Source: Calvatia gigantea
Lineage: Eukaryota > Basidiomycota > Agaricomycetes > Agaricales > Lycoperdaceae
Length of the DNA: 64,000 bases
Assembly: GCA_025093985.1 (NCBI GenBank)
Contig: JACAAK010000016.1
Span: 310,001 to 374,000 of the forward strand
Reading direction: 5' to 3'
Shown one piece after another: positions 1,147-59,690 of the stretch. The notes beneath the pieces are model-generated. The model worked only from the letters and a program-made list of their open reading frames with translations. It was not told the DNA's origin and ran no database searches. The stretch's first letter is position 1, and every line of letters starts with the position of its first letter. The position numbers and the translations under genes are program-made.

Positions 1147-4100
1147 ATGTACGTCGTGTCAAGACGCGCGGCTCCAGTCGGTAGAACCACGACCGCCGCG
1201 TTTCGGCCGCGCACTACAGGTCCAGCTTTGTCCGTCAAGGTGGTGTATGCTGGATTAGGTGTAGCTTCAGCGAGAAGGGGGTATCACGACAAAACTTTCG
1301 GGTATAGGCCACCCCCTCGATATGTATTTCCGGATTGTGAGTTCAAAGCCCCTGTTCATCCCCATACACGACTAACGTACGACAGATACCACAAAACAGC
1401 TTTCCAACAGGCACCACAATGCTACCCTCCTACGCTATGTCGACTCTATGCGCATGCACGGACACCGCGCAGCACGTATAGATCCCTTGGACTTAATCCA
1501 ACGGGAAGAGGTCGCTGCTCTCGATCCCGCGCGCTATGGACTCACTGAACGTGACAAGAAATACGACGTTGATGGTATTCTGTGGACTAAGCGCGTTGGA
1601 GAGGGTCAGGGCGAGGAGGAGATGTGGACACTTGAAGAGATTGAGAGACATTTAAGGAGTGTTTATGTTGGTAACATTGGTTACGAGGTGCGTTCCTATT
1701 CATTATATTGAAATTGGGAGCTATGTTGAATACGGCCTGTTGTAGTACATGCACTCGCCATCCAAGTCGGAACGATTATGGTTCTCTCACCTTTTGGAAT
1801 CACAGACTTTACCCTCTCCTACAGACAAGCCATTGCTCGCAGTTGATGAGGAAAAGAAACGGAGGATACATGCATTGTTGGCGCGCAGTGAGGTGTTGGA
1901 TCATTTCTTGCAGGCCAAGTTTCCCAATTTGAAACGCGTGAGTGTCCTGGGTCTTGTAATATTAGAACGCAGAAAGCGAGGTTGACACTGCCCTATTTTT
2001 CTAGTACGGGTTGGAGGGAGGCGAGTCCATGATACCCGCTTTGGACACATTGTTCTCTTCTGCTGCACAAAGTGCGCTCGTTTCTTAATTGTCGCTCTGC
2101 AGAAATTGACTTGTATCGACTCGTAGGTGGCATTCAGCATATCGTCTTGGGTGTGTCCGCCCTCTTCTCCAAACAGTGAGATCAATATGAATTGATATAA
2201 CATCCCTAGGAATGCCCCACCGAGGTCGCTTGAACCTCCTTACAGATCTGCTACACTATTCCCCAACTGCATTATTCCACAAAATCAAGGGTGGCTCAGA
2301 ATGGCCCGAAGAATTAGGTGCTGAAGGCGACGTGCTAAGCCACCTTGGTTCGTAAATCTCCACCAGAAGAGGATTATTCGCTGATACATATTACCGTAGT
2401 TTCCTCACCCACACTTCAATATGAGGGTGCAGGAAACCCGTTGAAGGTCTCAATGCTTCCAAATCCGTCCCATCTCGGTACTTCACATTCTCCCCATTTT
2501 CACCTCGTTCTTCAAGGCCGCTGATGCTTGACCTCCGCAGAGGCTGTAAACCCCGTCGCGCTCGGCAAAACCCGTGCTAAACAATTCTCACTCCTCAAGA
2601 CATCACCGAAAGAATGTCAATTGGGTGATAGAGTGATGTGCGTGCAGTTGCATGGTGATGCCAGTTTTACGGGTCAAGGAGTCGTTATGGAGGGTCTTGG
2701 TCTGAGTGAGTGTCGTTCATGCTTCTGTTGGAGGGGTATGGAGAATTGATAGGGTGGATGTTTTTTTCTTCTTTTTGAATAGGTAACTTGCCGCATTTCA
2801 CCAGTGGTGGGAGCGTTCATTTGGTCGTGGAGTAAGCCTTCTGTGAATCCCCTTCGGCGTGCCATTAACTCCTGTGTTTTGTTTTTAGCAACAAGTACGT
2901 CTATTTTTGGTGGCTTACATGAGGAATGAGAACGGACCTGACGTGTTGTTTAGCATCGGGTATACCACTCCAGCTTCGGGTGCTAGATCTTCGGCCTACT
3001 GTTCGGATGTTGGGAAAGCGATTAATGCTCCCGTATTACATGTAAATGGTGACCATCCTGAAGGTCTGTGCTCATCTTCAGACCACCTGCAATCTATATT
3101 GAAAGAGATTAGATGTGGCGCGTGCTATGGATATTGCCTTCCGATACCGCAACTATTTCAGAAAGGTAGGAGAACACGTCTCTGGAAATATATAATCCAA
3201 CTGGATAATGATTCTAGGACATCATTGTGGACTTATTCGTCTACCGTCGTTGGTTAGTAACTCAACCTTCGCACTTTTGCGTTTGTATCAAATTCAACTT
3301 AGGGGCCACAATGAACTGGATCTGCCCGGTATCACGAGTCCGCTCATGTACGAAAAGATCGCCGCTAGAAAATCAGTTCCAGAACTCTACGAACAAAAAC
3401 TCCTTGTAAGCCCTCTTATCCCACCGTCAACCACGGCCTCATGTTTACTAACACGACCCAGTCCGAAAATGTCTTGACACAAGAAGACATAACGAACGTC
3501 CGGTCAACTTACAAATCCCACCTCGAAGACCAACTTTCCAAAGTACCCAACTACACTCCACCTCTCGCCGAAGCACCTATGCTCCAACAGCAGTGGAAAG
3601 GCCTCGTATGGCCTGCGAGCAACGAGGCCAAACGTTCTGTAGACGTGGATACTGGTGTGTCGAAGGATTTGTTGAAGCAAGTCGGGAAGGCGTCCGTGTG
3701 GGTTCCGGAAGGATTTGAGGTTCATTCGAAGATCGGACGACATGTGAAGAGTCGGTTGGGGAGTTTGGAGAAGGAGAAGGGGTTGGATTGGGCTACTGCC
3801 GAGGTGTGTGTACATCGTCTCCTAATCAAGGAACAGGCAGGCTTAGGAGTTGGTTGTGTGCATAGGCTCTGGCCTTTGGGTCGTTGATGCATGAGGGGTA
3901 TGATGTCAGGATTTCTGGGCAGGACGTCGGGCGGGGCACCTTTAGCCATCGACATGCGATGTTAGTCGACCAGAAGACGGAGGGTGTGGTTGTGCCTTTA
4001 AATGAGGCTTTGGGTGCTGAAGGGAAGTTGGAGTTGGCGAACAGTGTGTTAATTCCCCACCATGCCGGGAGGAGACACTGACGTTTTTTAGGTTCTCTGA

Positions 4101-5145
4101 GCGAGTTTGCCGTGCTCGGGGTGTGTATTCCGTTTCAGTACTATACCTAAGCTTACCAGCGCTGTAGTTCGAGTATGGCGCCAGCTGGGAACGCCCAACC
4201 CTGCTTCCTATCTGGGAAGCACAATTCGGTGACTTCTTCAATGGTGCACAGGTCATCATCGATACCTATATTTCGTCGTCCGAGAGTAAGTCTCCATTCC
4301 CCTTTCTAGAGATACAAATCGCTAATCTCACTAAATAGCCAAATGGCTCAAACAAAGCGCCATTGTCCTACAACTCCCTCATGGTCTCGACGGTGCTGGT
4401 CCCGAGCACTCGTCATCCCGTGTTGAACGCATGCTTCAGCTCACGAACGACAAGTACACTGAGGAAACGGCCGAGCCAACAAGTGTCAACATGCATGTTG
4501 CATTCCCTACTACGCCTGCGCAGTACTTCCACCTTCTGAGGAGGCAGATGAAGAGGGATTACAGAAAACCTTTGGTCATAGTTGGACCTAAAGGACTCTT
4601 ACGACTCGCGGTCCGTCCATCACTCACTCTTTAAAGACTTGACCAAAGCACTGACTAAATGGGAACAGGCATCCTCATCTGCCTTGGCAGATCTCGAACC
4701 AGGAACAAAGTTCCAACCTGTCCTCCAAGACCCGCTCGCTAATCCATCCCAGACGAAGCGTATTGTCTTGCTGACGGGCAAACTATATTATGACCTCCTC
4801 AAAGAACGCGAAGCACGCAACCTCGTCGACCAGGTCGCATTGATCAGGCTCGAAGAACTCGCACCATTCCCGTTCACGCAGCTTCGCGAAACCTTGGAAA
4901 GTTACGGTGATATTTTGAACGACGTAGAACTGTGCTGGGTACAGGAGGAACCGAGAAATCAAGGCGCTTGGGGACACGTCAAAGAAAGGATAGAGAGCGT
5001 GTTGGAGGATGCTGGTGTTAGTCTGAGGAGGAACTGGTTGGGCTATAAGGGACGGGCGGAGAGTGCAATTCCGGCTCCTGGTATTGGCAAAATATATGCG
5101 AAACAGCAGAAGGAGGTTATTCAGAGCGTGTTCGAGGATATATGA
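1147..5145 (+). CDS. DHTKD1: 2-oxoadipate dehydrogenase E1 component (DHTKD1 type), mitochondrial
   Basis: ThDP-dependent E1 subunit that decarboxylates 2-oxoadipate in mitochondrial lysine/tryptophan breakdown. Twenty exons join in frame to 975 residues: 1147-1336, 1386-1687, 1746-1937, 2005-2071, 2127-2150, 2210-2347, 2400-2477, 2541-2705, 2783-2831, 2889-2894, 2954-3063, 3113-3165, 3218-3252, 3303-3405, 3462-3803, 3866-4043, 4092-4120, 4168-4285, 4339-4610, 4669-5145. The N-terminus is Arg-rich like a transit peptide. Diagnostic motifs are [21 protein letters not shown] (about residue 260), [10 protein letters not shown] (ThDP, about 370), [46 protein letters not shown] and [14 protein letters not shown]. 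Similarity to animal DHTKD1 (length, [16 protein letters not shown]) is closer than to 2-oxoglutarate dehydrogenase, and no long OGDH N-terminal extension is seen. The frame is intact. The substrate assignment is inferred from the family. Confidence 0.93.
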
Positions 5146-6240: not shown

Positions 6241-7569
6241 TTACCACCTCAACTTCTTGGGGAAGAACTTAGCGATAAGGCCCATGTAATATGGTTTGAG
6301 CTTGTGAGGATCAACCGGATCGTCGCTCTTGCTGTATAAATCATACGGGTTGAACGCTTGGACAGCCGCCAAAGCTTCCTCATCCTCTTCGTTGCAAAGG
6401 TGTTTATACGCACCCTCTCTGTGCCACCTAAAGTCTAAGGGTCAGGACCCGAGTTTCCCGGGATTCCGGAAAAACGAAACTCACGGATAGAAAGAATGAT
6501 AGCGGATCATCCAGAGCCCTTCTTTCGGAAGCGTACATTGATCCTTTAAGACAAGGTATAGATACTGGCCATGGTGTCAATTGGTCACGGAAAATTCGGT
6601 CTTCCAGTCAAAGGGCTCACTTCATCATGCCCCCAAGAAAGCATCACATTGTCTAGACCACAATGAGGCCTATAGATGCCGCATTCGGTCATTGTTTCTT
6701 TGTTCTGGGAATCAACATTTGATGAGAAAGTCTCAGGGTAAATGATCTTGTCCGAGAACTGGCAACCAATAGGGAAGGTGTCCTGTATCGTTGGGTCAGA
6801 GCATATACCTGAACGAAGGAACTGTGCTACGCACCCCAACGATGGCCCATTGGCCCCTGGCGAATGGATCTTAGCCTGATATAACCAAGAAGTCTGGAGG
6901 ACTACCTACTCTGGTTGAAAAGTTGCGAGTAGCTTACCAAGATCATGCACGAGACCAACGACCTGCATCCATTCGGGCTTGCCATCGCGGCGGATTGCCT
7001 CAGCTGTCTGCAATAGGTGTTCAATCTGGGTCACGCTCGTCTGCTCAGAGTGCCTGTCAGCCGCTGAAACACGAAAATTTGCAAAAGTCTTCTCACGTCT
7101 GGATCAGAGTCGTCCTTCATTGAATTGAGAAGCTCCATCGCTTCCCAGATACCTGTGAACGAAAGACATAAGTATATTCACAAAATCATATGTAAAGTGA
7201 AAATTTACCCATCTCAGCATTGCGCAACTCTGCAAAATGTTTCCGGATCTCAAGGTTAAACTGAAGCGTTTGTTTTGCTGCGATAGGAAAATTAGCGAAG
7301 AGATAAAGTGCAAGCAACCTAGGACGAACTGTGCTGTTCCTTGTAAAACAATTTGACGCGATCGCATGCTTCTGTATACTGTCTAAATTTTGTGGTATCC
7401 TTATCCTTGGAGAACTGGGCCTTGGAATCCCAGAGATGGCCCTTCAACTGGTTGACTATCAACGGAGCACACTTTGAGTATCGGAGGCACTGACGGAAAT
7501 AAACAGCCTCTCACCTTCGTCAACAGCGTCAGACGTTTGTTCGAGTTGTTCAAACTCAGAGGGCTTCAT
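6241..7569 (-). CDS. MIOX: myo-Inositol oxygenase
   Basis: Non-haem di-iron oxygenase that cleaves myo-inositol to D-glucuronate. Nine exons on the minus strand join to 295 residues, close to the usual length of about 285: 7515-7569, 7330-7455, 7209-7277, 7097-7152, 6910-7040, 6835-6856, 6621-6782, 6485-6564, 6241-6427. Family motifs run in order: [92 protein letters not shown] and, at the end, FNPYDLYSK then PYYMGLI. The iron-ligand His/Asp pairs (HDLGK, GHDEY, RYHS) are present. Exon 5 must run past a GTAAGC donor-like site to the GTAGGT donor at about 6909 to keep the conserved GKLL; using the earlier site breaks the motif. The gene converges with the DHTKD1-type gene. Confidence 0.94.
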
Positions 7570-9705: not shown

Positions 9706-11139
9706 TTACTGTAACTCCGTAGCGGTGTCTCTCTGGTAGACTCGGTAAAAGTCTGCTACGAGATACAAACTACCAGCAACAATGATCAAGCCTGCATTTT
9801 CCGTGTGATCCGCTGCCCAACCAATTGCTGCCGACAGTGATTGAACCGGTGCTACATCATCGTCCGCGACCCATATATCGGCGGTCGGGATTACGTTTCT
9901 AACTACATCGGCGAGATCGCATGGTGGGACAGATTTGACCCATGGCATTCCCGCCGGTGGAGAGAATTGTGTCAGTGCGACATGTACTCTGACACGATTC
10001 GTTGGTCCAGCCGAAAGGTGCGGTAGCAAAATCGGGGATAGGGTTTCAAGAGGCGTTTTGGGCGGTGAATGAGATAGCGCGAAGATATAGGTAAGGTCGA
10101 TTATCGGATCGATGGAGAGTGAGACGATGCGATCCATATAATCAGCCAAGGTTTTGGCAGACCCTGGATTATGGGCACCGTCGACCAAAACGGGAAGACG
10201 TCTGGGCGATGGGATAGTGTGGAACGAAAGGCGGCCCCGCCAATGTACTTCGTTGATTCCACGAACGATAGCGGGAGGCGTGATAAGATCAGCGAGGTTT
10301 TTGTCAGCCAAGGTCTTCCCCCTTATCAGGACAGAGACCACTGTGAGCGCAGTCGCAAGGTTCTCAAGTTGGTGCCGTCCTCGAAGCGGGAAGTCTGCTC
10401 TGATTTCTTCCGTAAAAGATGGAAGCGTACAGGATACTTTCCCTGCGGGCGGTGGCTGGAATGCTGGTGGCCACAGGGTCAGACTTGGCGACGCCGCATT
10501 TCCCAAATTATGGACAGTGAGAAGAGGAACCATTTGGCTACCCTTGTCCAGAAGAACGGCACTCACAACATCGACAACTTCCGGATATTTTTGGGGACCC
10601 AATACGAACGGCCGTCCAGTCCTAGCAATTCCGACTTTTTCTCTCGCAATCGCCGAAACCGTGCCGCCCAAGAAAGCTTGGTGGTCAAGATCAACATTGG
10701 TAAGAGCCGAGGCTAGTATAGCCTCGTCAGGTATTATGTTCGTGGCGTCCAGCCTTCCTCCCATACCCACTTCGACTACAGCAACATCGACCCCGACACG
10801 CTCAAAGATTTGCAGAGCCGTTAGTGTGAGCAACTCAAAGTTACTGAGATTTGTGCCTTGCTCGGCATCGACGTGTTCAACTTCAGCTCTTACTGAGCTA
10901 TAGACTTCAGCGTCAACTGGGTTATCATTGATGACAATGCAGTCGCATATCGTTACGAGGTGGGGGCTGTTATACCTGCCAACGTTAAGGGGAGGTGACG
11001 TTGCCCGGAGAATTGAGGAGACTATGGCGGTAACGCTCCCTTTTCCGTTAGTGCCTGCGACGTGACATGTCGGCCGGGTGTATTTCGGGAGATGTCGTAT
11101 GGCGTGCTGTAAGCGATCCAACGTGAGGCTTATCGACAT
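9706..11139 (-). CDS. FOL3: Dihydrofolate synthase
   Basis: ATP-dependent ligase that adds glutamate to dihydropteroate in folate synthesis. A single intronless frame of 477 residues, unusual beside neighbours with many introns. It shows the Mur-ligase-type P-loop GTNGKGS (residues 29-35), NSPHL (about 60), VVEVGMGGRLDATNI (about 125), LTNVDLDHQAFLG (about 150), REKVGIAR and GAHNPGSA (about 325, the C-terminal domain signature). The frame opens two codons earlier at a TTG, but the first ATG is at 11139-11137 and gives the natural start. Folylpolyglutamate synthase is the related alternative; the short N-terminus starting directly before the P-loop helix fits dihydrofolate synthase better. The frame is intact to TAA at 9706-9708. 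Confidence 0.9.
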   Translation of the reverse strand: MSISLTLDRLQHAIRHLPKYTRPTCHVAGTNGKGSVTAIVSSILRATSPPLNVGRYNSPHLVTICDCIVINDNPVDAEVYSSVRAEVEHVDAEQGTNLSNFELLTLTALQIFERVGVDVAVVEVGMGGRLDATNIIPDEAILASALTNVDLDHQAFLGGTVSAIAREKVGIARTGRPFVLGPQKYPEVVDVVSAVLLDKGSQMVPLLTVHNLGNAASPSLTLWPPAFQPPPAGKVSCTLPSFTEEIRADFPLRGRHQLENLATALTVVSVLIRGKTLADKNLADLITPPAIVRGINEVHWRGRLSFHTIPSPRRLPVLVDGAHNPGSAKTLADYMDRIVSLSIDPIIDLTYIFALSHSPPKTPLETLSPILLPHLSAGPTNRVRVHVALTQFSPPAGMPWVKSVPPCDLADVVRNVIPTADIWVADDDVAPVQSLSAAIGWAADHTENAGLIIVAGSLYLVADFYRVYQRDTATELQ

Positions 11140-12307: not shown

Positions 12308-12921
12308 TTATAGCGGTACCTCATCCGATCCACGCCCCCACCCGGGTGCATCTGTCTTCTCTTGTCTCCACCCCGGAGCACCGGAGCTGTCACGCCTCCA
12401 ACCTGGTGCAGAATCCCTCTCTCGTTTCCAACCCGGTGCACCATCGGTTCCACGCTTCCAGCCAGGCGCGCCATTGCTGTCTCTCTTCCAGCCAGGGGCT
12501 GATTCACTATCCCGCTTCCATCCGGGTGCGCCATCGCTCTCTCGTTTCCAGCCAGGCGCGCCCTCACTATCACGTCTCCAGCCAGGTGCCCCTTGGCTAT
12601 CGCGTTTCCAACCAGGTGCACCCTGGCTGTCCCTCCTCCAGCCGGGAGCGCCTTGACTCCCGCGTCTCCAACCCGGTGCACTGACCTATAAATTAACAAT
12701 AAGCAAGGGGTATCGCCCGCGGGGTGGTGGGGTGGGACGACTAACGTCAGCAACATCTTCCGCGACCGGAGCACTACGACCCAGGAGGTTCAAGTTCTCC
12801 TATCAACAGCATGAGCTCATGTAATGGAATCATGTTCGTAACAAGTACATACCACAGGTGCAGCACCAACACCGACAGTAAGGGCCGATGCAAGGAGAGT
12901 CAAAACAGTTACGGTGCGCAT
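12308..12921 (-). CDS. Secreted Kex2-processed repeat protein (putative peptide/RiPP precursor)
   Basis: Three exons (12853-12921, 12746-12799, 12308-12685), all joined in phase 0, give 166 residues. Exon 1 is a clean signal peptide (MRTVTVLTLLASALTVGVGA, then AP). Exon 2 is a short acidic pro-region. Exon 3 is twelve tandem decapeptides of form [DEG]-[ST]-x-[GS]-A-P-G-W-[KR]-R, for example DSEGAPGWKR, DSNGAPGWKR and ESDGAPGWKR, then GSDEVPL and TAA. APGW is present in all twelve units. Dibasic KR or RR, the site of the Golgi protease Kex2, ends the first ten; units 11 and 12 end in RQ and GR. Codons of the GAPGW core vary mainly at third positions, which suggests selection on the peptide. 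The expected products after Kex2 and carboxypeptidase trimming are octapeptides ending in Trp. Fungal KEP proteins and dikaritin precursors share this layout. The family and product are unknown, and no tailoring gene was seen nearby. Confidence 0.85.
12320..12685 (-). repeat. 30-bp tandem repeat array (about 12 units) within the precursor gene
   Basis: The period is 30 bp, equal to ten codons. Units differ by scattered substitutions, many of them synonymous in the minus-strand frame, and no insertions or deletions break the period. It encodes the APGW-KR/RR units of the secreted precursor. Because the core is partly palindromic, the plus strand also reads as an open decapeptide repeat; see the rejected items. 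Confidence 0.9.
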
Positions 12922-12975
12922 TATGTTTTGGGGGTTGATGACTTCTGAACCATCCATGTGCGAAAAGTCTTCAAG

Positions 12976-12982
12976 TTATATA
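12976..12982 (-). promoter_or_regulatory. TATA box of the repeat precursor gene
   Basis: TATATAA on the minus strand, 55 bp before the ATG at 12921. The spacing is typical of a highly expressed or regulated fungal gene with a short leader. Confidence 0.5.
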
Positions 12983-16573: not shown

Positions 16574-18222
16574 TCACGCCTCGTTCTTGCCAAAATCACC
16601 AAAGTCGAATCCGTTATTGACGAACTGAAAATCTGCACCATTCGCACAGCCTCCATTTCCAGATTGATATCCAAGATCCCCGTTCCCAAAATCAAGGGCC
16701 GGATTTCCCCAGACATCAGAAGCTCCCAGGTTGTCAACGCCAGTGAACATAGCATTGGTGGGAGTCTGATCAGGATGGACGGGTTGAGGAGCATAGACGG
16801 GAAGAGGGAGCACCTTATCGGAAGGCTGCGGAGAACCCGAGTACGTCGACGAGGTATGGGAGGATGGCAGTGATGGACTCTGTTGGAGGGAAGACGACAG
16901 CCACTGGTGCATATCGAGCTCCGGAACCTCCGAGGTGCTATTGTTAGAATCGGGGGTCGTGGGATCGTTAGGAGAGTGGCTGTTGTACATGCGGGAGAGA
17001 ATCTCCTGGGGTACCAGGGGTTCCAATGGTCCCAAACCAAGATTGGCATGAAGCGTTTGTTCGTAGGGAGGTAAGGAGGTCATTAGCTCGTTGACGGTGA
17101 AGGGAGCGTTCTGAGGTTCAACCTGAGATGACTGGAAGTTGAAGCTACTGAACGTATTGAAGAGGGTAGGGTCTGGTTCTGGGAGTGCAGAGGTGTCGTG
17201 TTCGAACATGTTGGTATGTGTCAACTGCGGATTAGGCACAGTCCAGGAACGGAAAAACGCCGGTCCAGCACTGGATGGGCGGCGTTGTTGGCCAAAGGCC
17301 ATTCGTTGCTGACGTGAATTAGGCGATTCAGGCCGGGGCACCAATAGGAAAGGAGCTGAGGGAAGCGTTATGTTGGCATATGGGTTGTAATAATCATTAG
17401 GAAGGGGTACGGAAGAAGAACGGCGATGAGTGTACACAGGCGCTGGGGCAGCGACAGGCGTCTGGGAGCGAAGCCTGTCAAGGTTACGAACGGCTTCGGC
17501 CAATTGCTCTCCTTTCTTGCCCTCAAGGAGTAGCTGGGCGACCTCTTCGCACCTGCGCTCATCTTCAAAAGTCGGCTGGGCCTTATCCTTCTTCTTTTCC
17601 TTATTCTTGTTGTGAACAGGACGGAAGCGGTAGTTGGGATACTTTGCTTTATGTTCAGCCTTTGCGTGCTTCGCCTTCACTTCCCAGACGCGCTTTTCTT
17701 CTAATGGGAGTGCCCTCCAGCAGTTACCTGAGTCACGATAAGATAACGGTCATAAATTAAAATGTGATTTCTTACCGATGATCTTCGATAAAGATCCATG
17801 GTTTGTCTCGATGGAACCTGGGACATGTTTTTGACGAACAAAGTCGGCGCGGAAGAGCATGAAAGCATTAGGTGGACGGGGAATGTAACCGAGGGACCGT
17901 CGCTTGCCAGGCGGTACACGTCGGCGGGCGGGACCATGGGCGGGAGCCTCCGAAGGAGGAAATAGGGCCGAGGATGGCGAAGGCGGCATGGCGGAGTCCG
18001 AACCGTCTTCAGGCTCAGCATATGTGACGGGAGTCACATTAGGTGCGAACGTCAGCGGCTTCTGAGGTGGTGGGAGACCAATCCCATAGACACCAGGTCG
18101 GGCGGGGTTCAGGCCTGCTGTTTAGAGTCAGTACGACAATATGAGCATTATAGAACCAGACGAGACGTACCAAGCATGGCAGACGAGCGTCTTCTGCGGT
18201 TGGCGAGGCGGAAAGCAGACAT
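16574..18222 (-). CDS. HMG-box (MATA/SOX-type) transcription factor
   Basis: Three exons (18171-18222, 17776-18117, 16574-17727) join to 515 residues. The HMG box lies at about residues 97-168: IPRPPNAFMLFR, then GSLSKIIGNCWRALP across the second intron, then EKRVWEVKAKHAKAEHKAKY. This is the sequence-specific MATA/SOX class, as found in basidiomycete sexual-development regulators. A basic KRR patch precedes the box and a KNKEKKKDK stretch follows it (possible nuclear signals). The remaining 330 residues are Pro/Ser/Asn-rich low complexity ending in an acidic-aromatic Gly/Phe/Asp segment (GFDFGDFG), which could be an activation region. DNA binding is inferred from the box; the target genes are unknown. 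Its 3' end faces the repeat precursor gene 3.6 kb away. Confidence 0.9.
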
Positions 18223-32706: not shown

Positions 32707-35700
32707 ATGAATAACGATTACAGACGACGGGTAGCCGCCATGCAGACCCAGCAAGCCCAACCCCAACGCCGCAACCCGCTCACGAACGCCGGCAATGTCC
32801 AGCAGTTTCCACAAGCCCAGCAACCGACGTCCCCAAAACCGCCCCCAAAGTCCTCATCGCCACCCCTTCCTCGCCAGAACAGCAAGACAACACCGCCGAC
32901 ACCCCCGAGAGTCATTGTGGACAGGCACAATAGGTTCCAGTTCACCCGCGTGGGCTTCTTGGGAGAAGGTGGCTTTGCTCGAGTCTTTGAAGTCAAAGAC
33001 CCCCGAGACACGAGCCTTGCTTGTAAGGTCATTACCAAGAGTTCCCTCAAGACGAAGAAGGCCAAAACAAAGGTGATTGTCAGCCCCTTTTAGTGGATAT
33101 GCTCACTGACCCGTTTGAAAGCTATGGGCAGAAATTAAAATTCACCGTTCCCTCGAACACCCAAACATTGTTCGCTTCCATGATTGCTTCGAGGACCAGG
33201 AAAACGTGTATATGACCCTGGAGCTGTGTCCTTCCGGTTCCCTCATGGATATGCTGCGTCGACGGCGCCGCTTCACGGAACCAGAAGCTCGGTTCTTCAT
33301 GGTTCAGCTCATCGGTGCATGTCACTACATGCATACTCACCAAGTCATTCACCGTGATTTGAAACTCGGCAATCTGCTTCTCGATGCCAACATGAACATT
33401 AAGGTCGCCGATTTCGGTCTTGCTGCGCTGATCGAGAACCCCGGAGAAAGGAAGAAGACCATCTGCGGAACACCCAATTATATCGCTCCAGAAGTCTTAT
33501 TTGATACGGTTAATGGCCACAGTTTCGAAGTCGACACTTGGTCCATCGGTGTTATTCTTTATACCCTAATTATCGGTCGACCTCCGTTCCAGACGAAAGA
33601 CGTCAAGGACATCTACAAGTGAGCCGTACTCTTACCTTATCTGTCTGGTTTCTTATGTCTTGTATTCACTAGGCGCATCCGCGACAACGAATACGAATTC
33701 CCGCCCGACCGCAGAGTTGGATCTGCCGCGAAAACCCTCATCCAGCAAATACTCACTCCCGATCCTTCCCAAAGACCCACCCTCTTCGAGATTTTAGACC
33801 ATCTCTTTTTTATCCAAGGACCGGTCCCTTCTTATATTCCCTCCTCGGCACACGACTGCCCCCCTGATTTCAATAATATCACGCCGAGCGTTTCTGAGAG
33901 TAATCTGAGACGTCTGCGACGCTACGCTTTCCTCGATCAAGGCATGGCACCGAGCAATAGTGGCAACGTTCCCCAGAGCAATAGTGGCAAGACCATGACG
34001 AGCACGATTCAACAACAGGAGAAAGAATTCCAAAAGGCCATCCAGCCAGGTTCTCCTATCTCCGCTTTGCTCAGCTCAGCGCGGCAGCCCCTAGTCATGG
34101 GTGTCTCACAGAATCCTTCTGACGGCGCCACTAGCGCGCCTAACCCAAGGGAGAGTGCGCTATTGAGAAAATTGCAGGCTGCCAAAGAAAGTCCTCTACG
34201 TCGCAACTATATCAATGCTGACGATGAGTCGAACGCGGAGGAAGATAAACGTGCGAGGAAGGAACTCGAGGCACAGAAGGCTCGTATTGTTGCTCAAATG
34301 GCCCCAGTGCGAGAAGAACCGGAAGAGGAGGAGGGTGATGGTGTGGAAGATGAACCGAATCCGTTAGCGCCGAAGGATAAGTACGCCCACCTAGCCGAAA
34401 AACTAGCTGCGGCACCAGCAGTTGCGGTAACCGCGCCCGCACCACGTCCATTACCGCAGATCCCTGTTCAGAAGGAACGTGTAGCGCTGGCCCCCGCTAG
34501 GACCGCAAAGGAGAATATCCTGACATCCTCAGCCCTCGCTGCTTCGATGACAACAATGCCTAAGGGTGACAGCATACCCAGCAGTCTAAAAGTTAAAGGG
34601 AGAGAGAGAGTTGTAAGTGTGCGGGGGGAGAAGGAGAATATGCCCATCGCTCCAGGTTCGTGACCATCCTTTTTCGTCGAACGGAGCCCTTCTGACATGA
34701 CCTTCTCCATAGTCGATATGGCACCTTCGGTACCAGCTAAACCAGAGAAACGCTTTGATGCAGGCATTGAGGGCTCATTGAAGCTGAACGGTTTTGATGC
34801 TGCGGCACAGACGCTGACTGCCGCATTTGAAGCGAAGACTGCTGGGCGCGTTTTCCGTGATTACTCAAATGCACCACTTGTGGAAGAGAAAGTATTCATC
34901 GTCAGTTGGGTTGACTACTGTAATAAGTACGGGATGGGATATGCGCTTACTGATGGGAGTGTGGGCGTATACTTCAATGATAGCACAAGTTGCGTGTTGA
35001 GCCCCGATAAAGTGTTCGTCCGCTTTCCTTCTTTCCCTATTACGCGGTGCTAATTCTGCATCGCGGGACAGGCACTTCGATTATATCACGTCGCGGCACC
35101 AAGGGAACGCCTACATCCGGAAATCGTTTACCGTCAATACGTATCCTGAGGAGCTGAAGAGCAAAGTCTACCTCTTGAAGAGTTTTGAAGGGTATATCAT
35201 GGACCGGTTATTCAACCACCATGACTACGTGTACCGAGATACCGAACGTACGAAGGGCATGGAGTGGGTGCACAAGTACCTAAGAATGAAACATGTCATC
35301 GTGTTCAAACTTTCACACGATGTTCTCCAAGTACGCTTTCTAGTTCCTTTTGGCTTCCGAAGTCTCACCTCACTGCCCCATTCTTAGTTCAACTTCTACG
35401 ACCATTCTAAACTCATACTCTCGTCCCATGGCTTGCTTATCACTCACATCGACAAGAGCTACAACCTGACAAGACATACACTTTCAGATGTCATGGCACA
35501 ATCACTGAACCCTGGATCGAATCCCGATCCGGAGCAAGCGAGGTTTAATCAAAAGCTTGTGGACAAGCTGAAATACTGTAAAGAGGTGCTCGTGAGTATC
35601 AAGGAGGCAAGTGCGGGAGTGGCAGCGAAACAGCAGGAACCAGTGGTGGTGCAACAAGAGCGGATGCCGTTACGACCGCAGCAGCAAGAACGGACAGAGT

Positions 35701-35825
35701 GCGTCCAAGCGCCAGTCCAAAAAAGGACTGAGGCACCGGTTCCCCTCGGTAATGGCCATACTTACACGAATGCGCAGCAGCAGCATGGATTGATGGCGAG
35801 AGCATCGAGAATGACGCTTCGGTAG
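32707..35825 (+). CDS. CDC5: Polo-like protein kinase
   Basis: Mitotic Ser/Thr kinase of the Polo family. Six exons (32707-33072, 33122-33618, 33673-34655, 34713-35013, 35072-35330, 35388-35825) join to 947 residues. A Pro/Gln-rich N-terminus precedes the kinase domain, with Gly loop [10 protein letters not shown] (about 84), HRDLKLGN (about 199), DFGLAAL, an activation-loop Thr in [14 protein letters not shown] and [12 protein letters not shown] long linker of about 330 residues (acidic and basic, with KEN-like AKENI and EKENM, possible APC/C degrons) leads to two Polo boxes. PB1 includes [20 protein letters not shown] (about 680-760) and PB2 includes [19 protein letters not shown] (about 775-850). 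The C-terminal tail is Gln-rich. The linker is longer than in yeast or animal members. The frame is intact. Confidence 0.95.
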
Positions 35826-37476: not shown

Positions 37477-40400
37477 ATGTCGGGACATCATCGGCTCAGT
37501 GATCTCCAGGAGGAGACGTCGTCTCAGATAGCCTTTCGACCCCCTTCCCAATCAATAGCGCTGGATGTGGAGCAGCGCACAGAACACACTCACCACGCCC
37601 ACCCCGAGTTCCAACCACGCTCTCCTTCGCGCCCTGGCGCCCGTTCACGAAGCTCTTCGGTTTCTCATGTTGACGTGACATTCTTTGACCCAGAGGGGGT
37701 TCGGGAATTGAAGAGAACCTTAACGGCGGAATCTGTGAAGGCATCTAAAAATGTCGACCCGGAATCTCAAACCTCTACGAATACGGATTCGACCCTTGCA
37801 CTGAAGCAAGGGGAGCCGTTCGACTTTGCAAAAGTCCTCCGTAAAACTTTACAAAGGTACGCAGATGATTTTGATCGTGTAAACCAGCCTTTATTCAAGG
37901 CGTCGACAGACAAGAAGAATACCAGATTAAAAACAGGGAACTTGGAGTAGTATTCAGGGACCTTCGTGTGGTCGGTCTCGGGGCAACTGCGTCCTATGCA
38001 CCTACAATGAGCTCCATATTCAATCCCTTGAGCGTAGTCGAAGCAATCCAAAAGGCTCGGCATCCACCTACTCGCGATATTTTGAGTGGGTTTGAAGGTG
38101 TCGTCAGGCCAGGAGAGATGCTTCGTAAGTGTATATAGTTTGACCACGGAATTGTTACTAATCCTTTATTCTACACAGTTGTCCTTGGGAGACCGGGGTC
38201 AGGTTGCACCACTTTTCTCAAGACGCTCGCAAATAGGAGAAAAGAATATCACGCTGTAGACGGCGAGATCCATTATGATTCCATTTCTCCAGAAGACCTA
38301 CAGCGACACTACCGGGGCGACGTGCAATATTGTCCCGAGGATGATGTCCACTTTCCTACCCTCACCGTGGAGCAGACTCTCAAATTTGCTGCGACCACTC
38401 GCGCTCCCCGCAACCGTGCCGGTGAGAGCCGCAGTGAATACGTCAATCGAGTGACCAATATGCTGGTCACTGTCTTCGGCCTGCGACACGCACGGAAGAC
38501 CCTTGTGGGCGACCACATGATACGGGGGGTTAGTGGGGGTGAAAAGAAGCGGGTCTCTATCGCCGAAGCCATGGCCGCCCGTAGCTGCATAGGTGCTTGG
38601 GATAAGTAAGCGACCCCCCGACCACATTGATTTTCTATCCTCACCGAGTGACTCTTGTTAGTTCCACCCGTGGACTTGATGCCTCCACAGCATTAGAATT
38701 CGTTCAAGCACTCCGGATTGCGACCGACACCTTCCGCACCACCACCATCGTCTCTCTTTACCAAGCTGGGGAGTCGATCTATAAGCATTTTGACAAAGTT
38801 TGCGTTATCTATGAAGGCAAAATGGCATACTTCGGTCCCGGCGATCTCGCAAGGCAATATTTTATTGATATGGGGTATGCATCACACCCAGAGCCATGAC
38901 CCGTCTATTGACATGGATCGTTCATAGATACGAGCCAGTGAATAGGCAGACTACTGCTGATTTTCTGGTTGCAGTGACTGACCCGAATGGTCGGATTCCT
39001 CGACCCGGTCCTCTCCGCCCCCCACAAACTGCCAATGAGTTTGCAGAGTATTTCAAGAACTCTGACCTCGGGAACCGTAACCGTCAAGAGATCCAGGAAT
39101 ATATTTCGGGATCCGTCGGTAAGGTGGATCGCGCAAGAGCATACAAGCAAAGTGCCCGTGATGAAAGTGCTCAGATGTCACGGAAGGGAAGGTGCGTGCA
39201 TGTTTCTATGCATATTCTGTTAATATGTGCCTGATTCGTCATCTCCCGAAGCCCTTACTTGATGAACATCCCTGAACAGATACGAGAAGTCGTGATCCGT
39301 CGTGCTCAGATCTTGCGAGGAAATTTGCTCGTCACTGGTTTAACCCTCTTGTACGTGCTCAATCAAATCTATGCTTTTATAGCTCAGGTTTTAAACTTCT
39401 CCGCTCAGCTCTTTCATCTTCCAAGCACTTATCATGGGAAGCATTTTCTACAACGTGCAAGATAATACAGCGGCATTTTTCTCTCGTGGAGGCGTCCTCT
39501 TCTTGTGAGTTTTTGATATATTACTGTTGCTATTTCCCCTAATATTTTGACCCCTCATACAGCGCTCTTCTGTTCTCCGCCCTGACTGCAATGGCTGAGA
39601 TTCCTGCTCTATTTGCCCAACGCCCCATAGTTCTTCGTCACCAACACGGCGCTCTCTATCACCCTTTCATCGAAGCCATCGCACTCACATTTGTAGACGT
39701 GCCGATTACCCTCGGCATAATCATCGTTTTCGCAATTGTTCTTTACTTTTTGGTGGGGCTTCAACGGAGTGCAGTAAGTACTCAGGGCTTGCAACTTGCG
39801 TATATGCTGGCTGATCGGTGCCTTTTAGGATCAATTCTTGTAAGTGCAGGCCATTTTTAGCATAGATGTTCAGATCTTACTTGTCCTCCAGCGTTTTCCT
39901 TCTTTTCTTGTTCACAATGTGCCTCACAATGAAAGGATGGTTCCGAGCAATTGCTGCTTTATTCGCGACGGATGCGATGGCACAGTCGGTTGCCGGTATT
40001 TCCGTCCTCGCCCTTGCGATTTACACCGGTAAGTTATCAGTTCTGATAACCTTGCTGAACGGATCTGACGGGACGTAGGTTACACCATTCCCAAACCTAC
40101 TATGATCGGAGCTTTGCGGTGGATTACCTACATTAACGTAAGCCACATCATGTCCGTTGTTCGGTCTGTTTTAATCCTTATTCCTCTTTGCCTTAGCCTT
40201 TGCGTTATGGGTGTGTCTTCCCAATTATTATCTTCCTCGGGTTATGGCTGATCACGACTCCAAAGGTTCGAGGCTGCCATGGCGAACGAGTTCCGAACTC
40301 TTCAAGGTGCATGTTCAAGTCTTGTGCCCCAAGGCCCTGGCTACGAAAATGTTACAATTGAAAACCAAGTATGTACGGCGGTCGGCTCATTGCCCGCGCA

Positions 40401-43274
40401 ACCCTTCGTCGATGGTGACCGCTTCTTGGCCCTTTCTTATGGATTCTCGTGGTCCAATGCTTGGAAGGTTCGCATCTACGTCATATTTCGTTGCTCGCGG
40501 CTAAAATCTACACGTTGCACCGCAGAACTATGGTATCGTCATCGCCTACGGTATCGGTTTCTTTATAGCTCTCCTTGTTTTCACGGAATTCATGACCTCC
40601 GCCTACCACGAGAGTGCTGTCGTCCTCTTCCGTCGTGGGTACAAGAAGGTTCGGATCACCAATGACGAAGAAACGGCTACCACCAACGAGAAGGAGCGCC
40701 TACCCGAGTCAAACAAAGAACTGGAGGAGGAGGCCATTGGGTCGCGCACTCCAATGACGGATATCTTCTCTTGGCAACACCTTGATTACACCGTTCCCAT
40801 TCCTAGTGAAGGGGATCGGAAGTTATTGAACGATGTTTCGGGTTATGTTGCTCCTGGGAAGTTGACGGCGCTGATGGGAGAATCTGGCGCGGGGAAAACA
40901 ACTCTCTTGAATGTTCTCGCACAGAGGACTTCAACGGGTGTTGTGAAGGGAGATGTTTTCGTCAACGGCCAGCCTCTACCCAATGATTTCCAGGCTCAAA
41001 CGTATGTTTTCCCCCTGGCTTGGTCTCGATATAGGACTCAAGCTATAGATAGCGGTTATTGCCAACAGATGGATACGCACGTTCCTGAATGCACAGTTCG
41101 AGAGGCACTGCTGTTCTCCGCCAAGCTCCGTCAACCTCCTTCTGTCCCAATCGCCGAAAAGGAAGCCTAGTGAGCTCGTTCATCCCTGGGTATGCTCCGC
41201 CTATTGATGCCGTTTTTTTGCGTAGTGTTGAAAAATGCCTAATGATGTGCGGCCTCGAAGACTTCGCAGAAGCCACCATCGGTTCCCTTGGCGTTGAGCA
41301 CCGCAAACGTACAACCATCGGGGTTGAGCTCGCAGCGAAGGTACTGTCTGACAATTTACTCAGTGTTCGGCACTACTGATGTTGGGTTTGTAGCCGAAGC
41401 TCTTGCTCTTCCTTGACGAACCCACTTCTGGGCTTGATTCCCAGAGCGCCTGGGCCATCATGTCCTTCCTTCGGTCTCTCGCAGATAGCGGCCAAGCTAT
41501 TCTTTGCACGTGAGCTCTCCGACTCTCATATTGATAACCTTTCGACTGACATGCCCCCAGGATTCATCAGGTATGGGAGCATGGCCTACGTCCCCCGATT
41601 CATTCGAGAACTCAATTATCCCTCTCAGCCATCTGCTGAACTGTTCCAGGTCTTCGACCGCATGCTCCTACTCAAGAAAGGTGGACAAACTGTTTATTTT
41701 GGCGACCTTGGACGCAACGCTACGACGCTAATCGATTATTTTGAGGGAAATGGTGCTCGCAAGTGTGGGCCTGACGAGAACCCGTGAGTCCAAGTCCAGT
41801 TGTGGAAGTGAATTGTTGCTTAAGCGGGCCCTCTATAGGGCTGAGTACATGTTAGATGTCATCGGTGCTGGTGCGACTGCGACAAGCGAGCAGGATTGGC
41901 ATACCATCTGGGAAGGCTCTAAAGAGGCAACTCTACTCCAAGAAGAAGTTGAAGGTATCCACAACGAAGGTCGCGGGAAGGCCGCTGTTGAGGCAACGTT
42001 CACATCCGAGTTTGCCACATCTTGGTTCTATCAAACCTGGGAACTCGTCAAGCGGGGGCACGTCGCGTATTGGAGAAATCCCACATATTTGATGGCCAAA
42101 ATGGCGTTGAATATCATCGGTGGCCTCTTCATCGGCTTCACTTTCTTCAAGGCCTCCAACTCCCAACAAGGCACCCAGAACAAGCTCTTCGTGAGTCTAA
42201 TTTCACCGTCCCCCCATAACTACCCTGCTGATTTGTTTTGATACCTTAGTCAATTTTCATGGCGACAATTTTGAGGTACTTCGTCCTAACCACTTAGTCT
42301 GATAGCCTAAGCTCATTGATACCCCTAGCGTGCCGCTCTCCAATCAATTGCAAGTTCCGTATATTGATAAGCGTACCATCTATGAGGTTCGCGAGAGGCC
42401 GAGCCGCATCTATAGTTGGACCGCCTTTACGACAGCACACCTCTTGGTCGAGATTCCCTGGAACATAATCGGCTCTTTATTCCTCTTCTTCTGTTGGTAC
42501 TGGACCGTCGGCTACTCTACAGATAGGGCTGGATATACCTACCTCATGCTCGGGATTGTTTATCCACTCTACTATACTACGATTGGCATCGGTATTGCTG
42601 CCGCCGCTCCGACCGCTGAGATTGCAGGCATTTTGTTCTCAACGCTCTTCTCTTTCGTTGTTGCCTTGTGAGTCGCTTATATCCCATGGCATTGCTTATC
42701 GTTGACCTTTTCGATTTGCAGCAATGGTGTGTTGCAACCATATAGGCAGCTACACTGGTGGAAATGGATGTATCGCCTCTCGCCCTACACCTACCTCGTC
42801 GAAGGTCTTCTGGGCCAAGGTCGGTTTTCTGCACCACTACTCCTTTGAAACAACTGACTTGTCTTACAGCTCTTGGCCATCAATCAATTGAGTGCTCCGC
42901 CGTTGAATACGTTCAACTCGAGCCACCATCTGGAGTGACTTGTGCGCAATATCTCGATCGGTTTATCTCGTTTGCCGGAGGATATGTCACCAATCCCGAC
43001 GCCACTACTGCCTGCCGCTTCTGTAGTATGTCTACTGCAGATCAATTCCTCGCTTCGGGCTTCAACATATACTATAAACATGCCTGGCGTAATTTTGGTC
43101 TCATGATTGCATACGTCATTTTCAACGTACGTTTTCCGTTTTTCGCCCTCCGCTTTCTGTCACTCACTATATCAAAAGGTCGCTGTCGTTTTCGTCTTCA
43201 CGTACATCTTCCGTATCCGCACGGGAAGTCTTCTCCCTGATTTTGGTAAGAAGACGAAGACAAATAGAGCCTGA
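37477..43274 (+). CDS. PDR-type (ABCG) full-length ABC transporter
   Basis: Plasma-membrane efflux pump of the pleiotropic drug resistance type, laid out (NBD-TMD) twice. Twenty-five exons join to 1494 residues: 37477-37856, 37910-38124, 38179-38605, 38662-38874, 38928-39191, 39252-39350, 39409-39504, 39563-39773, 39829-39839, 39892-40028, 40079-40137, 40197-40210, 40266-40467, 40526-41001, 41053-41169, 41226-41340, 41394-41509, 41561-41570, 41629-41783, 41839-42190, 42250-42275, 42329-42667, 42722-42819, 42870-43126, 43179-43274. NBD1 has the PDR-typical altered Walker [18 protein letters not shown] and WDNSTRGLD. NBD2 has [17 protein letters not shown], then [15 protein letters not shown] and CTIHQPSAELF. 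Hydrophobic segments fit 6+6 helices. The frame is intact, and length and motif order are normal. Substrates cannot be predicted. Confidence 0.95.
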
Positions 43275-58934: not shown

Positions 58935-59690
58935 TCAAGTGCATGATGCACTAGCGCAACTCCGAAGGGAGGACTGCATTACCATTGCAGCCACCATAGA
59001 TGAGCCCTCCAGATAAGATGACAATGCTTGGCTGATATTGAATTGTAGTCCATGCCGTGGTCTTGTCAGTTCAACTACTTCTGCTTGGAGACATCGTGTC
59101 ACTAGGCTGAATGCCCAGGAATGCATAATCTCTGGTGAGTGCTCGTACAGCAGATCCGTAATTTGAGTGGCCTGATCCAATACTGAGTGCCGAGCTTCAG
59201 GTAGCCCACATCCCCAAACCCCTTTCATAACCCCCAGAATAGTCAAATTGGTTTCATCAAGGACATTAAGAATGTGTGAGAGGGATGGAGTAGCATAGTC
59301 AAATTGGTTTCATCAAGGACATTAAGAATGTGTGAGAGGGATGGAGTAGCCATTTTCCAAGAGGAAAAATCAGATTATGTTTTTTTTCCTACTTTGATAA
59401 ATAGCCTCGTAGCTCGTATGGTACAATGTGATCATCACAATCACTTATCGGACTTACCAAAATTGATCAGACAGTCGGGAGTGCTGCCTAATTTAGGCAA
59501 AAAGGCGGGGAGGGTACATGTTATGATGGTGTGACACAGGCTGTAGCCAAACATGAACATCGTACATTTGTGCCAGTCCCTGGGACGCGTTAGCAGTTGA
59601 CGAAGTTTCGGTATCACTTCGGATCAACGTCCGCTTGTATAAGAGCGTCCCAGGTGACTGGGTAGGAGTCTGGGGTTGTTCGTGCTTTAT
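58935..59690. mobile_element. TIR element E3 (left end unclear)
   Basis: The right terminus at 59538-59687 is the inverted equivalent of the E2 left terminus and is complete. The interior matches E2 and extends further into the unknown-protein fragment (minus strand, down to about 58935, with RPRHGLQFNISQALSSYL). No left terminus was found, so the element is truncated or its end has diverged. Confidence 0.5.
59239..59350. repeat. 56-bp exact tandem duplication inside E3
   Basis: 59239-59294 and 59295-59350 are the same 56-bp unit (starting ATAGTCAAATTGG). E2 has it once. Because 56 is not a multiple of three, the duplication shifts the frame of the element protein just after its start. Confidence 0.85.

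What the first reader, a model, noticed from the sequence alone, without database searches (positions are those of the whole stretch)
12308..12921. Kex2-type repeat precursor with twelve APGW decapeptides
Seen: a three-exon minus-strand gene with a signal peptide, a short pro-region and twelve 10-residue units xSxGAPGW-[KR]R ending at a stop. All splice junctions are GT-AG and phase 0. Known: Kex2 cuts after KR/RR in the fungal Golgi. KEP proteins, alpha-type pheromones and dikaritin RiPP precursors (e.g. ustiloxin UstA) share this design. Inferred: the gene releases up to twelve related octapeptides of the DSEGAPGW type. I do not know a described precursor with this core, so it may be a new basidiomycete signalling peptide or RiPP.
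Basis: partly seen in the sequence, partly recalled or inferred. Interest (0 to 1): 0.93.

Follow-up and report, generated by a model that had tools for sequence, protein, structure and literature searches.

The report
Mushroom precursor of repeated tryptophan-ended peptides
A mushroom gene encodes a secreted protein that cellular proteases probably cut into about nine short peptides ending in Ala-Pro-Gly-Trp; the precursor type is already known in fungi, but in two other mushrooms a relative of this gene appears to sit beside the same folate gene, which makes it a useful handle on a possible mushroom signal.

Summary
The gene is real and correctly placed: minus strand, three exons (12921-12853, 12799-12746, 12685-12308), 166 residues, phase-0 GT-AG introns, twelve APGW motifs exactly ten residues apart, varying as coding DNA on this strand. 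The count needs correcting: 10 of 12 motifs precede a dibasic Kex2 site, so nine octapeptides (eight distinct) are cut out cleanly, not twelve. It is a KEX2-processed repeat protein (KEP); KEP peptides with C-terminal tryptophan were already found by mass spectrometry in Coprinopsis, Lentinula and Pleurotus (PMC9769878). New here: relatives in Mycena, Favolaschia, Termitomyces, Lyophyllum, Leucocoprinus and Earliella. In Leucocoprinus and one Termitomyces the KEP's locus tag is next to that of a FolC gene, the window KEP's neighbour too; this holds for 2 of 9 species where both rows were seen. Ten of 16 relatives (two of 18 hits left out) stop exactly at the tryptophan, so a free C-terminal Trp is likely. 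The dikaritin RiPP reading is not supported (UstYa matches only on other contigs), nor an alpha-pheromone reading (no STE13 start in the nine products). Best view: secreted unmodified linear peptides; a new member of a known kind.

The parts
12853..12921 (-). Exon 1: ATG and probable signal peptide, MRTVTVLTLLASALTVGVGAAPV
   Evidence: strongest hydrophobic 12-mer of the protein at residues 7-18; no signal-peptide predictor was available
12800..12852 (-). Intron 1, 53 nt, GTATGT...TAG, phase 0
   Evidence: join AAPV|ENL resembles AAPVESL of Leucocoprinus P0009
12746..12799 (-). Exon 2: short pro-region ENLNLLGRSAPVAEDVAD
12686..12745 (-). Intron 2, 60 nt, GTTAGT...TAG, phase 0; if retained it gives an in-frame stop before the repeats
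12308..12685 (-). Exon 3: repeat array and stop
12332..12685 (-). Twelve APGW motifs at 10-residue spacing; the first ten are followed by RR or KR, the 11th by RQ, the 12th by GR
12976..12982 (-). TATATAA, a possible TATA box 55-61 nt before the ATG
   Evidence: consensus only
9709..11139 (-). Neighbouring FolC gene (dihydrofolate/folylpolyglutamate synthase), same strand, ATG 1169 nt from the KEP stop; adjacent by locus tag to the KEP in Leucocoprinus birnbaumii and Termitomyces Mi166

Best explanation
The gene encodes a KEX2-processed repeat protein of a mushroom, probably of the family Agaricaceae. The signal peptide takes it into the secretory pathway. Kex2 cuts after ten RR/KR pairs, a Kex1-type carboxypeptidase trims the basic residues, and nine linear octapeptides of the form (D/E/G)-x-x-(G/S)-A-P-G-W with a free C-terminal tryptophan are secreted (GSQGAPGW, DSQGAPGW twice, DSEGAPGW, ESDGAPGW, DSESAPGW, DSNGAPGW, GTDGAPGW, ERDSAPGW). 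The fixed part APGW is probably what a receptor or other target recognises, the N-terminal half being free to vary. The gene is probably the ortholog of KEP genes beside FolC in Leucocoprinus and Termitomyces and belongs to a wider agaricomycete family. Shown: gene structure, coding constraint, homologs, locus-tag adjacency in two species. Inferred from known KEP biology: processing, secretion, lack of modification. Inferred only: that the peptide is a signal.
For: Gene model and repeat. Variation in APGW limited to synonymous sites. 18 profile hits, 13 of them at E <= 1e-3; 17 of 18 carry PxW followed by a dibasic pair. Leaving out P0010 and P0018, 10 of 16 end exactly in W-stop, so W is a natural C-terminus. 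In Leucocoprinus birnbaumii all four W-ended products are also octapeptides beginning with D; Termitomyces Mi166 has SDQGAPGW against DSQGAPGW here. Tag adjacency to FolC: NP233_g7811/g7812 and C0995_009104/009103, with equal contig lengths; the window FolC and both homologs pass TIGR01499. A Kex2-type P-domain match and a DPPIV_N protein are in the genome. Precedents: SGVAADW, MSGVAADW, SGTGEASAADW and GPPAPSW detected in mushrooms (PMC9769878, Results parts 1-2).
Against: No transcript or peptide data. The window protein does not itself end in W and has two degenerate units (RQ, GR), which may mean some decay. Kex1 was not searched. Six C. cinerea kep knockouts, including the Trp-type KEP 490115, had no phenotype, and the synthetic peptides tested had no antibacterial activity (PMC9769878), so a signalling role has no direct support. 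FolC linkage was seen in only 2 of the 9 named species for which both a KEP and a FolC row were listed: in Favolaschia, Mycena polygramma, M. galopus, M. epipterygia and Lyophyllum shimeji the contig lengths differ, in Termitomyces Mn162 the tags are not adjacent (C0989_001687, C0989_011356), and Termitomyces J132 cannot be judged. These may be paralogs or other FolC genes. The profile search scored only the 7996 candidates sharing most words.
Confidence: 0.8

Rival explanations
1. Dikaritin-type RiPP: the core octapeptides are cyclised or oxidised by UstYa-type enzymes.
For: Same precursor layout; UstYa genes exist in the genome (7 matches); an unlinked enzyme is not excluded; Trp can be a modification site (general knowledge).
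Against: All 7 UstYa matches are on contigs C7 and C23, none on C8. Among 40 window ORFs scanned with Pfam (of 255 listed) none is UstYa, tyrosinase or P450; the only oxygenase-like matches are a myo-inositol oxygenase exon and a lipid-desaturase match below its cut-off. No Tyr or Cys in the precursor. Agaricomycete KEP peptides found so far are linear and minimally modified (PMC9769878).
Confidence: 0.07
2. Alpha-type sexual pheromone analogue acting on a Ste2-like receptor.
For: Similar precursor design; C-terminal W is also known in ascomycete alpha pheromones; basidiomycete KEPs with alpha-pheromone layout are described (PMC6339444). In the 16 relatives, 26 of 76 W-ended products start with XA or XP (counted from the list), so the family may overlap with STE13-type KEPs, though A and P are common in these peptides anyway.
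Against: None of the 9 products here starts with XA or XP. STE2 gave no match, but no control genome rang, so this is weak. STE3 receptors, the basidiomycete mating receptors, were found on C74 and C1, not C8.
Confidence: 0.05
3. Peptide aimed at other organisms (bacteria, fungi, invertebrates) rather than at the producer; APGW resembles the molluscan neuropeptide APGWamide.
For: kep knockouts lack growth phenotypes and the authors suggest interaction with the biotic environment (PMC9769878). APGWamide is a known neuropeptide of molluscs (search listing only).
Against: Only the last of 12 copies has a glycine after W for amidation. No Cu2_monooxygen match, but the control was silent. 10 of 16 relatives end in free W. 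The same core is kept across several genera, which suits an internal partner better than varying enemies (inference).
Confidence: 0.25
4. Not a peptide source: a low-complexity secreted structural or cell-wall protein.
For: Repetitive secreted protein; no peptide evidence for this species.
Against: Dibasic sites follow 10 of 12 units here and recur in the relatives, many of which end exactly at W.
Confidence: 0.04

Closest known systems
Agaricomycete KEPs with C-terminal Trp: C. cinerea 490115 and 447393, L. edodes 2599, P. ostreatus 1091723 (PMC9769878, Results parts 1-2 and Discussion read)
   Same: Secreted precursor; short peptides ending in W (QYKAPSW, GPPAPSW, SGVAADW, SGTGEASAADW)
   Different: Core APGW; no STE13 spacer here; next to FolC. 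Sequence homology with those precursors was not tested (their full sequences were not held)
Hypothetical proteins NP233_g7812 (Leucocoprinus birnbaumii) and C0995_009103 (Termitomyces sp. Mi166)
   Same: AAPV after the leader, repeated PxW with KR/RR, tag adjacent to FolC
   Different: 5 and 7 PxW motifs instead of 12; both end in W-stop; Termitomyces has longer spacers; the Leucocoprinus gene model has a longer, probably misannotated N-terminus
Ascomycete alpha-type pheromone precursors
   Same: Signal peptide, pro-region, Kex2-separated repeats
   Different: No STE13 dipeptides; no Ste2 found in this genome (weak test)
Dikaritin precursors (UstA)
   Same: Kex2-separated repeats
   Different: No UstYa match on the contig; no Tyr in the core
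Molluscan APGWamide precursor (recalled; search listing only)
   Same: The tetrapeptide APGW before a processing site
   Different: No Gly donor for the amide in 11 of 12 copies; no relation by descent claimed

Membership tests
KEX2-processed repeat protein (KEP) | Signal peptide | tested here: inconclusive
   Hydrophobic stretch at residues 7-18; no predictor available
KEX2-processed repeat protein (KEP) | Repeats separated by KR/RR | tested here: met
   10 of 12 units followed by a dibasic site
KEX2-processed repeat protein (KEP) | Processed by Kex2 into peptides in vivo | not testable with these tools
   Needs peptidomics; a partial Kex2-type P-domain match lies on C12
Trp-terminated agaricomycete KEPs | Core peptide ends in W before the Kex2 site | tested here: met
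   All nine clean products end in APGW
APxW KEP beside FolC | Sequence similarity to the Leucocoprinus and Termitomyces Mi166 KEPs | tested here: met
   Pairwise E 1e-22 and 1e-23, inflated by the repeats
APxW KEP beside FolC | Adjacency to FolC across species | tested here: inconclusive
   Adjacent tags in 2 of 9 species with both rows; contigs not read
Dikaritin RiPP | UstYa (DUF3328) gene near the precursor | tested here: not met
   7 matches, on C7 and C23 only
Alpha-type pheromone precursor | STE13 XA/XP dipeptides after the Kex2 site | tested here: not met
   None of 9 products here; present in part of the relatives' products
Alpha-type pheromone precursor | Ste2 receptor in the genome | tested here: inconclusive
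   No match, but no control genome rang either
Basidiomycete lipopeptide mating pheromone | C-terminal CaaX | tested here: not met
   The protein has no cysteine and ends in DEVPL
APGWamide-type amidated peptide | Gly after W as amide donor | tested here: not met
   1 of 12 copies

The most novel reading that the evidence does not exclude
APxW peptides are an old, conserved peptide hormone of mushrooms: a gene family, in some lineages still beside FolC, makes a free C-terminal -A-P-G-W ligand recognised by an unknown receptor of the producer, controlling a mycelial or fruiting step, separate from the mating pheromones.
Probability: 0.22. Interest if true: 0.75.

Novelty: new member of a known kind. 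Interest (0 to 1): 0.42.

Why it matters
KEP peptides are widespread in mushrooms and their functions are largely unknown (PMC9769878, abstract). A family member apparently single-copy in this genome, which can be followed by its position beside FolC in at least some relatives and whose core is closely similar in two genera (DSQGAPGW here, SDQGAPGW in Termitomyces), gives a defined peptide to synthesise and a gene to delete, and so makes the question of KEP function easier to test.

Tried and rejected
Dikaritin RiPP: not supported by the genome search for UstYa. STE13-type pheromone: not supported by the product list. Mating-locus linkage: the STE3 matches lie on C74 and C1. Plus-strand coding: long plus-strand ORFs overlap the array but hold no [AP]PxW-dibasic repeats, and the variation fits the minus frame. 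Paralogs in the same genome: searches with the repeat, with P0001, with P0006 and with two DNA patterns found only this locus, apart from a self-match on the opposite strand and one hit on C34 whose middle motif is out of frame by eye. The reversed-pattern control also gave one hit, and that pattern does not see W-RR, so paralogs could be missed. Pfam gave one weak CTD match (20.1 bits, cut-off 25.4) in the window protein, the family matching 2 of 14 members. STE2 and PHM searches are uninformative because their controls were silent. Of 18 profile hits I left out P0010 (three PxW-KR units, but mostly AAAGW and a different N-terminus, perhaps an animal neuropeptide precursor) and P0018 (no PxW) from the family counts; counted with them, 10 of 18 end in W. 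P0017 (E 5.7) is not significant by itself, P0016 shares its end with P0015, and several hits are fragments or doubtful gene models, so the 16 are not independent.

Full report
Observation. On the minus strand an ATG at 12921 opens a 69-nt exon, followed by a 53-nt intron, a 54-nt exon, a 60-nt intron and a 378-nt exon ending at 12308. The 166-residue product starts with a hydrophobic leader (strongest 12-mer at residues 7-18) and contains twelve APGW motifs, each exactly ten residues after the last. Between copies the codons for A, P, G and W vary only at synonymous positions: 0 of 108 amino-acid-determining positions depart from consensus against 19 of 36 fourfold positions, p = 3.5e-14 (relatedness of the copies is ignored). 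The repeat has therefore diverged and yet been kept as a peptide on this strand. Shuffled peptides never held more than two APGW in 20,000 trials.

Corrections. Ten of the twelve motifs are followed by RR or KR. The eleventh is followed by RQ and the twelfth by GR and a short tail. Cutting at dibasic sites therefore gives nine octapeptides, eight of them distinct, plus a longer N-terminal piece that ends in VSAPGW and a C-terminal piece with the last two motifs. The xSxG pattern holds in 7 of 12 units. An in-frame ATG at 12957 is possible, but a TATATAA at 12982 and the start of the Termitomyces homolog favour 12921.

Relatives. A single-sequence search of a 5.8-billion protein database returned one hit, in Favolaschia claudopus. 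The profile of the two returned 18 at E <= 10, 13 of them at E <= 1e-3; only the 7996 candidates sharing most words were scored. Of the 18, 17 carry PxW followed by a dibasic pair. I left out P0018 (none) and P0010 (three such units, but mostly AAAGW and a different N-terminus). Twelve of the 18 are named: Mycena (5), Termitomyces (3), Favolaschia, Lyophyllum, Leucocoprinus and Earliella (1 each), to my knowledge all Agaricomycetes; I looked up the lineages of Leucocoprinus and Earliella only (the Termitomyces look-up gave names without a lineage). Ten of the 16 end in W followed by the stop. At the last unit the stop itself makes the C-terminus, so this is comparative evidence that the mature peptide ends in a free tryptophan. 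The four W-ended Leucocoprinus products are all octapeptides beginning with D (DSDTAPPW, DTASAPTW, DDAVAPGW, DTDVAPGW). Termitomyces Mi166 has SDQGAPGW, close to DSQGAPGW here. Unlike the window gene, 12 of the 16 relatives have at least one product that begins with XA or XP (26 of 76 products, counted from the list).

Position. The next recognised gene on the same strand is FolC at 9709-11139, 1169 nt from the KEP stop. In Leucocoprinus birnbaumii the KEP is NP233_g7812 and the FolC homolog NP233_g7811, both on a contig of 25,728 bases. In Termitomyces sp. Mi166 they are C0995_009103 and C0995_009104, both on a contig of 31,143 bases. The window FolC and both homologs pass TIGR01499. The adjacency rests on tags and contig lengths; I could not read those contigs. 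Nine of the 12 named species have both a KEP row and a FolC row among the best 120: two are adjacent by tag; five (Favolaschia, Mycena polygramma, M. galopus, M. epipterygia, Lyophyllum shimeji) have different contig lengths; Termitomyces Mn162 has non-adjacent tags; Termitomyces J132 cannot be judged. Two adjacent pairs among thousands of genes are unlikely by chance, but the linkage is not general, or some KEPs are paralogs. The three best FolC matches are unnamed (83, 71 and 69%); the best named are Macrolepiota 70%, Leucocoprinus leucothites 65% and Agaricus 64%, so the window is probably from Agaricaceae.

Mechanism. By the described biology of KEPs (PMC9769878: Results parts 1-2 and Discussion; PMC7329392: section 6 and passages; PMC6339444: STE13 section and passages), the leader sends the precursor to the Golgi, Kex2 cuts after the dibasic pairs and Kex1 removes the basic residues. 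A partial Kex2-type P-domain match is present. None of the nine products here begins with a STE13 dipeptide. The UstYa search found matches only on C7 and C23. None of the 40 window ORFs scanned with Pfam is UstYa, tyrosinase or P450; a myo-inositol oxygenase exon and a lipid-desaturase match below its cut-off are the only oxygenase-like ones (40 of the 255 stop-to-stop ORFs of 75 residues or more counted, so small exons were missed). I therefore expect unmodified linear octapeptides. The constant APGW end is the part under constraint and the likely recognition element. Whether the target is a receptor of the fungus itself or another organism is open: conservation across genera favours the former, the absence of phenotype in six kep knockouts of C. 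cinerea (PMC9769878) the latter.

Novelty. KEPs with C-terminal Trp cores are described, and several of their peptides were measured in mushrooms (PMC9769878). 'APGWKR' occurs in no paper of the library and 'GAPGW' in three, none of them on KEPs to judge by the listing; 'APGW' is absent from the main texts of the three KEP papers. Further searches listed no other paper on agaricomycete KEP peptides of this type. The supplements of those papers, which list homologs and types, were not open to me, so these proteins may be listed there. I rate the finding a new member of a known kind, with the position beside FolC in some lineages as the new point.

Noticed in passing
P0010 (protein database hit): An unnamed protein, perhaps an animal neuropeptide precursor, with repeated AAPGW-KR and AAAGW-KR units; similar to the fungal array, possibly by convergence.
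   Followed up: no
window 16577-17749 (-): HMG-box protein about 3.7 kb upstream of the KEP; Pfam match only just over the cut-off (25.8 against 25.4 bits).
   Followed up: no
window 2889-5142 (+), 6588-6905 (-): 2-oxoglutarate dehydrogenase C-terminal exon (with a below-cut-off E1 match upstream) and a myo-inositol oxygenase exon beyond FolC: metabolic surroundings, no sign of a biosynthetic cluster.
   Followed up: partly
window 33119-35822 (+): Polo-like kinase (kinase domain and two POLO-box matches).
   Followed up: no
window 38139-43237 (+): PDR-type ABC transporter exons.
   Followed up: no
window 59239-59350: Perfect tandem duplication of 56 bases.
   Followed up: no
G000 contig C74, about 1.034-1.084 Mb: Cluster of several STE3-type pheromone receptor matches, probably the mating-receptor locus.
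   Followed up: no
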